Shown: piece by piece, positions 33,387 to 36,400 of the stretch
Numbering within the stretch: position 1 is the first letter of the stretch
Layout: every line of letters starts with the position of its first letter
Origin: Methylotenera versatilis 301
GTDB lineage: Bacteria; Pseudomonadota; Gammaproteobacteria; Burkholderiales; Methylophilaceae
Direction: 5' to 3'
Length of the DNA: 64,000 nt
NCBI RefSeq assembly: GCF_000093025.1
Contig: NC_014207.1
Span: forward strand, 310,001 to 374,000
The notes under the pieces: generated by a model
Told to the model about the DNA's origin: nothing
The model's input: the letters and a program-made list of their open reading frames with translations, nothing else
Database searches by the model: none
Translations under genes and position numbers: made by a program

Positions 33387-34454
33387 ATGAGTAAATTTTG
33401 GAGCGATGTCGTACATAAGCTTACGCCTTATGTACCAGGTGAGCAGCCTAAGTTAGATAACCTAGTGAAACTCAATACCAATGAGAATCCTTATGGCCCT
33501 AGCCCTAAGGTGATCGCTGCGCTTAAGCTGGAAGCGGCAGATTCCTTGCGTTTATATCCAGACCCTAATTCAGATGCGCTCAAAGCGGCAATTGCTGAAG
33601 TGCATCATTTGCAGGCTAAGCAAGTGTTTGTCGGTAATGGTTCAGATGAAGTCTTAGCGCATGTGTTTCAAGCGCTGTTAAAACATAGTCGACCATTGTT
33701 GTTTCCAGACATTACCTACAGCTTCTACCCAGTATATTGCGGTTTGTATGACATTGAATATCAAACAATCCCTTTGGCGGAAGATTTTTCAATCAACATT
33801 GACGATTACGATCAGCCAAACGGAGGCATCATATTTCCAAATCCGAATGCGCCTACAGGTGTTCCTCTATCGTTAGCGACCATTGAGAAGCTGCTGAAAA
33901 AGAATACGCAGTCAGTTGTGGTGATTGATGAAGCGTACGTGGATTTTGGTACCGAGTCAGCGGTGAGCTTGATTAATACTTACCCTAATTTGTTGGTGAC
34001 ACATACTTTATCTAAAGCACGTTCATTGGCTGGCTTGCGTGTTGGATATGCCTTAGGCCATCCAGACTTAATCGAAGCATTGATCCGCGTGAAGGATAGT
34101 TTTAATTCTTATCCTATAGACCGCTTTGCTTCTGCTGGCGCTATTGCTGCTATGCAAGATACGGCATATTTTGAAGAAACGTGCAGCAAAGTCATTGCAA
34201 CACGTGTAGCGCTGATTAAAGATTTAACCCAGCTGGGTTTCGATGTGCTGCCATCAGGTGCAAACTTTATTTTTGCTAAGCATCAAGTAAAAGATGGTGC
34301 AGAGCTGACGGCCTTGCTCCGTCAGAAAAATGTTATTGTGCGCCATTTTAAATCACCAAGTCGGGTTGCACCTTACTTGCGCATCACAATCGGAACTGAA
34401 GCTCAGTCAACAGCCCTCATCGACACACTGACAGAAATACTTTTAGCTGCTTAG
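33387..34454 (+). CDS. hisC: Histidinol-phosphate aminotransferase
   Basis: A 355-residue class I/II PLP aminotransferase. [13 protein letters not shown] at the N-terminus is the HisC signature. [11 protein letters not shown] and [10 protein letters not shown] bind the cofactor, and the PLP Lys lies in [20 protein letters not shown]. It is 6 bases after hisD. After it the his operon is interrupted by the hexulose-phosphate synthase gene. Confidence 0.95.
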
Positions 34455-34682
34455 GTAAACAAAAAAAACTAATTTAATCAATATTATTCGCTATATTTCA
34501 GTGATGAAATGCTACAAAATCACTAAAACATTAAAAATAAGCAAAAAAAGTTTTTAATTTCACATTAAGTGCGTGTTATTATCGCGAAATGTGTGTTTTT
34601 CTACACAATAAAAAATTAACTCACTTTGTATTTTTAATCTAAATAAGTCACTTATGATTTATTTTTAGTTGGAGGATGTAGC

Positions 34683-35573
34683 ATGGCTCAAACCCAAATG
34701 GCATTAGATTCATTAGATTTCGACGGTACCGTCGCTTTAGCAACCAAAGTTGCTCCACACGTAGATATTTTGGAAATTGGTACACCTTGCATTAAGCATA
34801 ACGGTATCAAATTGTTGGAAGTTTTACGCGCTAAGTTCCCAAACAATAAAATTTTGGTTGACTTGAAAACAATGGATGCTGGTTTCTATGAAGCTGAGCC
34901 ATTCTACAAAGCGGGTGCTGACATCTGTACAGTTCTAGGTACTGCTGATATCGGTACAATCAAAGGCGTAATCGATGTTGCTAACAAATACGGCAAAAAA
35001 GCTCAAGTTGACTTGATCAACGTTGCTGATAAAAAAGCACGTACTATTGAAGTGGCTAAATTAGGCGCACACATCATTGGCGTTCACACTGGTTTAGATC
35101 AACAAGCTGCTGGTCAAACACCATTCAATGACTTAGGTATGGTTGCTGCTTTAAACCTGGGCGTTGACATTTCAGTTGCTGGTGGCGTTAAAGCTGCTAC
35201 GACGCAACAAGTTAAAGATGCTGGCGCAACTATCATTGTTGCTGGTGCTGCTATCTACGGTGCTGCTGATCCTGCTGCTGCTGCTGCTGAAATTACCGCA
35301 ATCGCTCACGGCGGTGCTGCTAGTGCTGGCGGTGCTAAGAAATTCTTACCATGGATCATTGGCGCTGCTGTTTTAGTATTGTTATTTACTTTACTAGGTG
35401 GCAAAAAACCAGAAGCTACTGAAGCTCCTGTTGTTGAAGCTCCTGCTGCAACAGCACCTGCTGCTGAAGCGGCACCTGCACCAGCGGCTGAAGTTACTGC
35501 TCCTGCAGAAGCTGCTGCACCAGCTCCAGAAGCGGCTCCAGCTGCGGAAGCTGCACCAGAAGCTGCTAAATAA
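34683..35573 (+). CDS. hps: 3-hexulose-6-phosphate synthase with C-terminal membrane anchor and Ala/Pro/Glu tail
   Basis: A 296-residue protein. Residues 1 to about 208 are a complete HPS barrel of the OMP-decarboxylase superfamily, which condenses formaldehyde with ribulose 5-phosphate in the RuMP cycle. Visible motifs are EIGTPCIKHNG, DLKTMDAG (Asp60, Lys62, Asp65), GVHTGLDQQ, SVAGGVK and AGAAIYGAADP. After a Gly/Ala linker comes a hydrophobic helix at about 221-239 (FLPWIIGAAVLVLLFTLLG) flanked by Lys pairs, then a 55-residue Ala/Pro/Glu tail. Ordinary HPS is about 210 residues. Strong GGAG ribosome site; Ala codons are mostly GCT, as in abundant proteins. It sits between hisC and hisB with a 228-base upstream spacer and its own terminator. 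Confidence 0.95.
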   Translation: MAQTQMALDSLDFDGTVALATKVAPHVDILEIGTPCIKHNGIKLLEVLRAKFPNNKILVDLKTMDAGFYEAEPFYKAGADICTVLGTADIGTIKGVIDVANKYGKKAQVDLINVADKKARTIEVAKLGAHIIGVHTGLDQQAAGQTPFNDLGMVAALNLGVDISVAGGVKAATTQQVKDAGATIIVAGAAIYGAADPAAAAAEITAIAHGGAASAGGAKKFLPWIIGAAVLVLLFTLLGGKKPEATEAPVVEAPAATAPAAEAAPAPAAEVTAPAEAAAPAPEAAPAAEAAPEAAK

Positions 35574-35632: not shown

Positions 35633-35675
35633 AAGCCTAGTTAAGATATTGTTATCTTGCTAGGCTTTGTTGTTT
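35633..35675 (+). terminator. Rho-independent terminator after hps
   Basis: Outer arms AAGCCTAG / CTAGGCTT and inner arms AAGATA / TATCTT form one long hairpin, followed by the T-rich TGTTGTTTC. It lies 60 bases after the hps stop and 138 before hisB, so it should limit read-through into the distal his genes. Confidence 0.82.
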
Positions 35676-35812: not shown

Positions 35813-36400
35813 ATGCGCTCTGCAGAAGTAGTTAGAAATACCTTAGAAACACAAATCACAGTCGCCATTAATTTAGATGGTACTGGCGTTTCACAATTCA
35901 GTACTGGTTTAGGCTTTCTCGACCACATGTTAGACCAAATCGCCCGTCATGGCATGATGGATATTAGCGTAAACGCTAAAGGTGATTTGCACATAGATGC
36001 TCATCATACGGTTGAAGACATTGGCATTACCCTTGGGCAAGCTTTTACTAAGGCAATAGGCGATAAAAAAGGCATACGTCGCTATGGTCATGCTTATGTG
36101 CCGTTGGATGAGGCTTTGTCACGTGTAGTGCTCGATATTTCTGGACGACCAGGTTTAGAATTTGGTTGTGTGTTTACACGCGCTTCAATTGGCGAATTCG
36201 ATGTTGATTTAATTCATGAGTTCTTCCAAGGCTTTGTGAATCATGCCAATGTTACTTTGCATATTGATAATCTTAAAGGTCATAACGCCCATCATCAAGC
36301 CGAAACGATTTTTAAAGCGTTTGGCCGTGCATTGCGCGTAGCAGTTGAGCTAGATTCACGCATGGCAGGCATTATGCCATCCACCAAAGGAAGTTTATAA
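35813..36400 (+). CDS. hisB: Imidazoleglycerol-phosphate dehydratase
   Basis: A 195-residue monofunctional HisB (no phosphatase domain). Its metal-binding repeats are [30 protein letters not shown] and [18 protein letters not shown], all intact. It starts the distal his segment hisBHAFIE after the hps terminator, so it probably has its own promoter in the 240-base spacer; I could not identify one with confidence. Confidence 0.96.

What the first reader, a model, noticed from the sequence alone, without database searches (positions are those of the whole stretch)
34683..35573. Hexulose-phosphate synthase fused to a transmembrane helix and a 55-residue Ala/Pro/Glu tail
Seen: a complete HPS barrel (to about residue 208) continues in frame into a Gly/Ala linker, a 19-residue hydrophobic helix (221-239) and a low-complexity acidic tail. 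Known: ordinary HPS is a soluble protein of about 210 residues. Inferred: this one may be anchored to the inner membrane. Methanol dehydrogenase makes formaldehyde in the periplasm, so a membrane-tethered HPS could capture it as it enters. The helix and linker resemble those before OmpA-type domains, but no such domain follows; the tail could also be a wall-spanning linker or a partner-binding region.
Basis: partly seen in the sequence, partly recalled or inferred. Interest (0 to 1): 0.8.

Follow-up and report, generated by a model that had tools for sequence, protein, structure and literature searches.

The report
Membrane-anchored formaldehyde-fixing enzyme in Methylophilaceae
In a family of methanol-eating bacteria, one of the copies of the formaldehyde-fixing enzyme HPS carries a predicted membrane anchor, of either of two unrelated kinds, which suggests that part of this supposedly dissolved enzyme sits on the inner membrane near where formaldehyde enters the cell.

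Summary
Window 34683-35573 encodes a complete hexulose-phosphate synthase (HPS), then a Gly/Ala linker, an 18-19 residue hydrophobic helix and a disordered Ala/Pro/Glu tail. It is neither sporadic nor an artefact.

In relatives (187 genome-by-protein entries, 140 genomes) every HPS found in the histidine cluster has a C-terminal extension (120 of 120). It is of two unrelated kinds: this helix plus acidic tail (70), or a short, highly conserved amphipathic end, LFGWLKKLFS (50), resembling a MinD-type membrane-targeting helix. HPS genes elsewhere lack both (62 of 67; the other 5 have the amphipathic end). All 40 genomes with two or more HPS genes read hold a tailed and an untailed one. One genome carries both kinds in tandem. 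Catalytic cores mix between copies, yet the his-cluster genes read all keep a tail.

Best reading: Methylophilaceae keep a dedicated membrane-attached HPS isozyme, first held by an amphipathic helix, replaced by a true anchor in Methylotenera/Methylophilus relatives. Attachment is supported by comparison, not by experiment. Formaldehyde capture at the membrane is plausible but untested, and two small-genome genera lack the tailed copy. The two HPS loci were known; I found no mention of the anchors in the capped searches made.

The parts
34671..34675 (+). GGAGG, probable ribosome-binding site
   Evidence: read directly from the sequence
34683..35306 (+). HPS catalytic barrel, residues 1-208
   Evidence: TIGR03128 240.2 bits over cut-off 200; OMPdecase/HUMPS Pfam 2.4e-37; PDB 3ajx E 3e-47; Foldseek TMt 0.92
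35307..35342 (+). Gly/Ala/Ser linker, residues 209-220, ending in KK
   Evidence: sequence; AF2 gives no secondary structure here, pLDDT below 50 at 214-216
35343..35399 (+). predicted transmembrane helix, residues 221-239 (FLPWIIGAAVLVLLFTLLG); LPW or LPY motif found in all 69 type B proteins tested
   Evidence: KD19 2.39; AF2 helix 221-238; dN/dS 0.08-0.19 and motif in 69 of 69
35400..35570 (+). disordered Ala/Pro/Glu tail, residues 240-296, predicted periplasmic
   Evidence: AF2 block pLDDT 42-46; composition A 43%, E 17%, P 13% over 69 proteins, charge of flanks
33387..34454 (+). hisC, upstream neighbour (conserved context)
   Evidence: ORF, named by sequence recognition; used as hisC query and found upstream of most tailed HPS genes
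35813..36400 (+). hisB (imidazoleglycerol-phosphate dehydratase), downstream neighbour (conserved context)
   Evidence: ORF, named by sequence recognition; used as query

Best explanation
The gene encodes a dedicated, membrane-attached HPS isozyme of Methylophilaceae. The HPS barrel stays in the cytoplasm. A flexible Gly-rich linker leads to one C-terminal transmembrane helix (N-in, C-out), and a disordered acidic Ala/Pro/Glu tail of about 57 residues lies in the periplasm. In many relatives the same gene ends instead in a 10-residue amphipathic helix (LFGWLKKLFS) that would hold the HPS dimer on the inner face of the inner membrane in the way MinD is held. The transmembrane version took its place in the Methylotenera/Methylophilus branch, probably through a tandem duplication of the kind still seen in genome G046. 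The untailed HPS is made beside the isomerase HPI and serves the soluble RuMP cycle. The anchored copy most likely condenses formaldehyde with ribulose-5-phosphate at the membrane as it arrives from periplasmic methanol or amine dehydrogenases, lowering free formaldehyde. Shown: ORF, conservation, pattern of tails, selection. Inferred: membrane insertion, topology, dimer avidity. Speculative (my probability about 0.45): the formaldehyde-capture role.
For:: 120 of 120 his-cluster HPS entries carry a tail (70 type B = TM plus APE tail, two of them cut by a contig end; 50 type A = amphipathic end); outside the his cluster 62 of 67 carry none and 5 carry type A; 40 of 40 genomes with two or more HPS entries read have both tailed and untailed ones; type B KD19 1.67 or more in 69 of 69; net charge of the 15 residues before the helix exceeds that of the 15 after it in 69 of 69; type A (55 entries, 19 different ends): K and L invariant (my sorting pattern demanded these two), G 54, F 53, W 52 of 55; hydrophobic moment 0.739 against 0.362 for permutations (2% reach it). 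Some type A ends sit on cores only 63-69% identical to the window's, so the end is conserved beyond the core's divergence. (hisC+hisB tree, 111 of 119 his loci): A and B exchange at least 2 times (starred branches), 5 by parsimony; no row lacks both; on the core tree tailed and untailed states change 15 times (7 forced), so cores mix while the tail stays. G046 holds B and A in tandem with cores identical over the aligned residues. G046's own MinD ends ...PGLLKRLFGGK. PMC8155659 (passages): one copy of the MinD C-terminal amphipathic helix is reported too weak; dimerisation gives binding. AF2 helix 221-238; each of 13 genomes has one HPI over the cut-off; in 8 it lies beside an untailed HPS, in the other 5 the untailed copy's place was not listed but the HPI lies far from the his copy.
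Against: No experiment shows membrane location. Hydropathy, charge bias and AF2 do not prove insertion; the charge bias partly reflects the acidic tail itself. The amphipathic end is only 10 residues, AF2 gives it pLDDT about 46-51, and its moment is higher than that of the only MinD end compared (0.45-0.55), so the likeness to MinD is loose. Two small-genome genera (g2, g16) have only an untailed copy in the 11 genomes examined, so anchoring is not needed for methylotrophy as such. HPI has no such tail in the 12 C-termini that could be read (a 13th row picked a wrong frame), so the product must diffuse. The his-cluster position does not point to formaldehyde. Five tailed copies lie where no his gene was seen (one, L283, is cut by a contig end). 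In only 8 of 40 genomes is the paralogue closer in core than the best tailed core of another genus, so core replacement is occasional. Genomes were taken mostly from the top of a truncated list, not at random, and in 100 of 140 genomes only one HPS gene was read.
Confidence: 0.75

Rival explanations
1. The two C-terminal ends are protein-docking or clustering elements, not lipid anchors: the amphipathic end and the hydrophobic helix bind the same partner (for example a membrane dehydrogenase complex or another enzyme), so location at the membrane would be indirect or absent.
For: The type A end is almost invariant in sequence, more than a pure lipid-binding helix needs. The ends look peculiar to this gene: an 18-residue type A query hits only HPS, once each, in 15 of 16 genomes (none in G000, which has type B; so short a query is not sensitive).
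Against: Types A and B share little beyond the Gly linker, yet one stands where the other stood; what they evidently share is affinity for membrane. The type B helix tolerates much substitution (pN 0.065-0.21) while keeping its hydrophobicity.
Confidence: 0.13
2. The tail is a neutral or expendable add-on: the his-cluster copy is a dosage duplicate and the C-terminal extension drifts.
For: The Ala/Pro/Glu tail varies in length from 25 to 111 residues after the helix, and the tailed copy was not found in the 11 genomes examined of two small-genome genera.
Against: 0 of 120 his-cluster copies lack an extension; the TM region evolves at dN/dS 0.08-0.19; type A ends are near invariant over the family; the tail stays while cores mix.
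Confidence: 0.04
3. The ends are cargo-loading peptides for a protein shell (microcompartment or encapsulin).
For: A short amphipathic helix after a Gly-rich linker is the form of microcompartment encapsulation peptides (recalled, no call).
Against: No BMC-domain protein in any of 31 genomes searched (19 of the window's genus, 12 of other families of the order), with the control positive in E. coli and Synechococcus. A transmembrane helix would not do this job. Other type A genera and encapsulins were not searched.
Confidence: 0.03
4. Anchoring is real but its purpose is not formaldehyde capture at entry: for example regulated sequestration of HPS, a scaffold coupled to the histidine/PRPP branch, or protection of the envelope.
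For: The copy sits in the his cluster in most genomes read, and the 11 genomes examined of two small-genome genera lack it.
Against: Five tailed copies lie where no his gene was seen, so the tail seems to follow the enzyme rather than the operon; the two tail queries hit no histidine enzyme (the genomes searched were 12 and 16).
Confidence: 0.35

Closest known systems
3-hexulose-6-phosphate synthase (HxlA/RmpA; TIGR03128; structure 3ajx)
   Same: Whole barrel and family score
   Different: The solved HPS 3ajx has 207 residues and 3f4w 211; here there are about 85-88 more, with a predicted membrane helix
The two HPS genes of Methylophilaceae (his-cluster copy and H4MPT/HPI-linked copy), described in PMC4109929, section 17 (section read)
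   Same: Same two loci, about 90% identity within a genome
   Different: That section does not mention C-terminal tails or membrane location
MinD C-terminal membrane-targeting sequence (PMC8155659, passages seen; G046 MinD)
   Same: Short C-terminal amphipathic helix with a K-L-F pattern on a dimerising protein; type A relatives may work like it
   Different: On a metabolic barrel enzyme, not an ATPase; no ATP-driven cycling implied; not a homologue; hydrophobic moment differs
Bifunctional HPS-HPI fusions (NF041755; ORFs of 389 and 387 aa in G447 and G334)
   Same: HPS barrel with a C-terminal addition
   Different: There the addition is the isomerase domain; here it is a predicted anchor
Particulate (membrane-associated) HPS activity reported for Methylococcus capsulatus in the 1970s
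   Same: HPS at membranes
   Different: The unfused Gammaproteobacterial HPS genes read here (eight, at 64-67% identity) end at 211-213 aa, with no such anchor

Membership tests
HPS (TIGR03128) | Score above curated cut-off | tested here: met
   240.2 bits against 200
HPS (TIGR03128) | HUMPS/OMPDC barrel fold with DxKxxD motif | tested here: met
   DLKTMD at residues 60-65; D60, K62 and D65 invariant in the 35 rows of A1; Foldseek TMt 0.92 to 3ajx. That this motif is catalytic is recalled
HPS (TIGR03128) | Formaldehyde + Ru5P condensation activity | not testable with these tools
   needs enzyme assay
single-pass inner-membrane protein, N-in/C-out | One hydrophobic stretch of about 19 residues above KD 1.6 | tested here: met
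   69 of 69 type B proteins, median 2.28
single-pass inner-membrane protein, N-in/C-out | Positive-inside charge bias | tested here: met
   net charge N15 above C15 in 69 of 69; partly driven by the acidic tail
single-pass inner-membrane protein, N-in/C-out | Found in the membrane fraction | not testable with these tools
   needs fractionation
MinD-like amphipathic membrane-targeting sequence (type A relatives) | C-terminal amphipathic helix with basic face | tested here: met
   muH 0.739, 2 Lys; helix 216-224 in AF2 at low confidence
MinD-like amphipathic membrane-targeting sequence (type A relatives) | Binds lipid | not testable with these tools
   needs liposome or GFP assay
bacterial microcompartment cargo | BMC shell genes in the genome | tested here: not met
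   0 of 31 genomes, G000 among them

The most novel reading that the evidence does not exclude
Methylophilaceae keep a separate membrane-bound HPS isozyme whose location is selected so strongly that its catalytic core can be rewritten from a paralogue while the anchor stays, and one anchor type can be replaced by an unrelated one but is not lost. It forms a formaldehyde-trapping layer on the inner face of the inner membrane, opposite the periplasmic dehydrogenases: a spatially organised RuMP entry step.
Probability: 0.4. Interest if true: 0.8.

Novelty: new variant of a known kind. Interest (0 to 1): 0.62.

Why it matters
How methylotrophs keep toxic formaldehyde low while passing a large flux of it from periplasm to cytoplasm is an open question, and HPS is generally treated as a soluble enzyme (both recalled). 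A membrane-held isozyme would give a physical answer that a simple fractionation and tail-deletion experiment can test. It is also practical: synthetic methylotrophic E. coli strains use hps from Methylobacillus flagellatus (PMC5904121 and PMC11136667, passages seen; which copy was not stated in those passages). PMC12628762 (passage) names Mfla_0250 as the Hps marker; by locus number and map position that would be the his-cluster, amphipathic-ended copy (inference, assuming G055 is that strain: C1:260362).

Tried and rejected
Microcompartment cargo peptide: no BMC genes in 31 genomes, 19 of them of the window's genus. Tail shared with other proteins: the 18-residue type A query found only HPS in 15 of 16 genomes and nothing in G000. 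The TM-plus-tail query in 12 genomes found, beside 12 HPS genes, nine weak hits (E 0.004-0.26): five small predicted lipoproteins (L296, L297, L298, L302, L303), two Ala-rich parts of other proteins (L299, L301), one read on the wrong strand (L300, not judged) and one without a locus. Recent recombination between those lipoprotein tails and HPS tails: longest shared DNA word 0-18 bases, no longer within than between genomes, so no sign of it. HPI with a matching tail: not seen in 12 HPI C-termini; the 13th (L345) shows a wrong-frame ORF and is not counted. Own promoter or terminator: the pattern scan finds no more than shuffles, so no claim. HPS outside the family with a tail: class sample, 7 of 369 genomes match (G000 among them); 12 of the 14 loci of the other 6 genomes read, none tailed, L361 only partly readable. 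Order sample: 13 of 399 match, all in the same family. Phylum sample: 11 of 398 match, two in the family; 11 loci of the other nine genomes read, 28-38% identical, 212-220 aa, none with either tail. Sorting: a narrow pattern missed two type A ends (L110, L266); one search uses a wider one, which still demands K and L at two places, so their invariance is partly built in; but no his-cluster gene was left unsorted, and the untailed genes with both ends present all have 209-214 residues. The 80 loci L164-L243 were left out of the counts as expected duplicates of the same assemblies (not checked one by one). Four 5'-truncated entries are kept (L150, L281, L282, L283); two type B entries are cut at the 3' end (L036, L079; of L036 only the start of the helix is visible, and it is not among the 69). 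140 of the 177 matching family genomes were examined, not a random sample; in 100 of them only one HPS gene was read. In the tree, 8 his loci were dropped (too little hisC/hisB sequence) and G046, which has both types, entered as A.

Full report
WHAT IS THERE. The ORF at 34683-35573 is intact and as described. Residues 1-208 are a full HPS by family model, solved relatives and fold. Residues 209-220 are a Gly/Ala/Ser linker ending in KK, 221-239 a hydrophobic stretch FLPWIIGAAVLVLLFTLLG, and 240-296 a low-complexity acidic tail. AlphaFold2 (35-row alignment) gives a confident barrel, a helix at 221-238 with block pLDDT 79 and 77, and a tail with block pLDDT 42-46. No Pfam domain is matched after the barrel. 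The gene lies between hisC and hisB.

SECOND COPY. The genome (G000, 3.06 Mb, one contig) has one other HPS at C1:1729519-1730148, 210 aa, 92% identical over residues 1-210, without any tail. The only HPI above the family cut-off is beside that copy. The two loci were already known: PMC4109929 section 17 (that section read) reports one HPS in the histidine cluster and one in the H4MPT cluster with HPI and transaldolase, the two about 90% identical. That section says nothing of tails. My searches of the held library listed no paper whose title or opening of the abstract describes an anchored HPS; several lists were capped (for example 15 of 97), I opened only a few of the papers, and most subscription papers are not held, among them the M. 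flagellatus genome and proteome papers.

THE FAMILY PATTERN. Of 187 genomes of the family 177 match P0001. I fetched HPS genes of 140 of these and read their C-termini. Of 187 genome-by-protein entries, 120 have hisC and/or hisB on the same strand within the fetched stretch: 70 have a helix-plus-Ala/Pro/Glu tail (type B), 50 have a Gly linker and an end such as LFGWLKKLFS (type A), and none has neither. Of 67 entries elsewhere, 62 have no tail (209-214 residues where both ends are present) and 5 have a type A end; these five are in genera g5, g11, g13 (two) and g21, and no his gene was seen near them (one, L283, is at a contig end). Forty genomes have two or more HPS entries read, and all 40 hold both a tailed and an untailed one.

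PROPERTIES OF THE TAILS. Type B: best 19-residue hydropathy 1.67-2.66 in 69 of 69 proteins with the whole helix visible; the 15 residues before the helix carry on average 1.96 basic and 0.04 acidic residues, the 15 after it 1.32 basic and 2.93 acidic; net charge is higher on the HPS side in 69 of 69. An LPW or LPY motif opens the helix in 69 of 69, and the helix region evolves under purifying selection (dN/dS 0.19, 0.08 and 0.10 in genera g1, g15 and g19, 488 close pairs in all, against 0.02-0.03 for the core; pairs are not independent). Tail length after the helix is 25-111, composition A 43%, E 17%, P 13%. Type A: 55 entries, 19 different ends; K at position 6 and L at 8 are invariant (both demanded by my sorting pattern), G 54, F 53 and 50, W 52 of 55; hydrophobic moment 0.739 against a permutation mean of 0.362, reached by 2% of permutations; none of 200 core 10-mers reaches 0.70. 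Of 13 genomes searched, the one with a MinD over the cut-off (G046) has a MinD ending PGLLKRLFGGK; its moment is lower (0.45-0.55). AF2 makes the last residues of a type A protein a separate helix at low confidence.

EVOLUTION. On a hisC+hisB tree of 111 of 119 his loci (quick method, midpoint root; G046 entered as A) one side of the root is all type A (25 rows). Type B rows all lie on the other side (86 rows, weak support 75; 85 of them without G046 at 99*), mixed with 20 type A rows. Exchange of A and B needs 5 changes, 2 forced by starred branches. Genome G046, at the base of that side, has B then A in tandem between hisC and hisB, with cores identical over the aligned residues, which looks like the intermediate. 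On the core tree (102 rows, thinned) tailed and untailed HPS interleave: 15 changes, 7 forced. In g4 the three tailed genes belong to a divergent HPS class, 63-65% identical to the window's, and group with the divergent untailed copies of the same genomes (96*; 89-93% aa identity). Against frequent recent conversion, in only 8 of 40 genomes is the paralogue closer than the best tailed core of another genus. The fair statement is occasional core replacement with the tail kept.

OUTSIDE THE FAMILY. In samples of the class (7 of 369 genomes with a match, G000 included), order (13 of 399, all the same family) and phylum (11 of 398, two of the family), none of the HPS-like ORFs that I could read outside Methylophilaceae has such a tail; the phylum ones are only 28-38% identical and may not be HPS.

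MECHANISM. Two unrelated C-terminal ends that stand in for each other at one locus, and of which one is always present in the his-cluster genes read, share one evident property: affinity for the membrane. The simplest reading is that this HPS isozyme is selected to sit on the inner membrane, first by a weak amphipathic helix doubled by dimerisation (as reported for MinD, PMC8155659 passages; that HPS is a dimer is recalled), later by a true transmembrane helix whose acidic tail is periplasmic. The step from location to purpose is inference. Methanol and methylamine dehydrogenases are periplasmic (recalled), so formaldehyde crosses the inner membrane, and HPS there would meet it first. Against this, the isomerase shows no anchor and two small-genome genera lack the tailed copy, so any gain must be conditional, for example at high or fluctuating flux.

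VERDICT. Membrane attachment is likely (0.75), the capture role open (about 0.45). New variant of a known enzyme; interest 0.62.

Noticed in passing
L063 (G046 C4:1757207-1762085): Two HPS genes in tandem between hisC and hisB, one with the transmembrane tail and one with the amphipathic end, with cores identical over the aligned residues.
   Followed up: yes
L296, L297, L298, L302, L303 (around 1450-1750): Small predicted lipoproteins (such as MTRSALLAALLALALTAC-GEKPAEEAP...) whose mature part is largely or partly the same Ala/Pro/Glu repeat as the HPS tail; no long shared DNA with HPS tails.
   Followed up: partly
L009, L017, L050, L053, L067, L070, L085 (C-termini of type B HPS): Seven type B tails end in a similar element, (L/V)VGAAK(D/E)A(T/A)G, after the Ala/Pro/Glu stretch; origin unknown.
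   Followed up: no
L263, L265, L267, L270, L272: Genera g4, g13 and g21 have a tandem pair of untailed HPS genes of two classes (84-87% and 64-67% identical to the window's); in G034 and G177 the HPI hit lies just beyond the pair.
   Followed up: partly
L003/L299 (G000 C1 about 1686565): The large ORF hit by the tail query looks like RNase E and has an internal segment SFFAKIKNFFV, another possible membrane-targeting helix (naming by recognition).
   Followed up: no
window 35633-35667: A hand-read dyad AAGCCTAG...CTAGGCTT followed by T-rich sequence lies downstream of the gene and may be a terminator inside the his cluster; the scan did not list it.
   Followed up: no
L361, L363 (G334): Two equal-scoring HPS matches cover only model positions 45-145, and one search found other pieces of L361 in other frames: possible broken gene copies or sequence errors. 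Described only.
   Followed up: no
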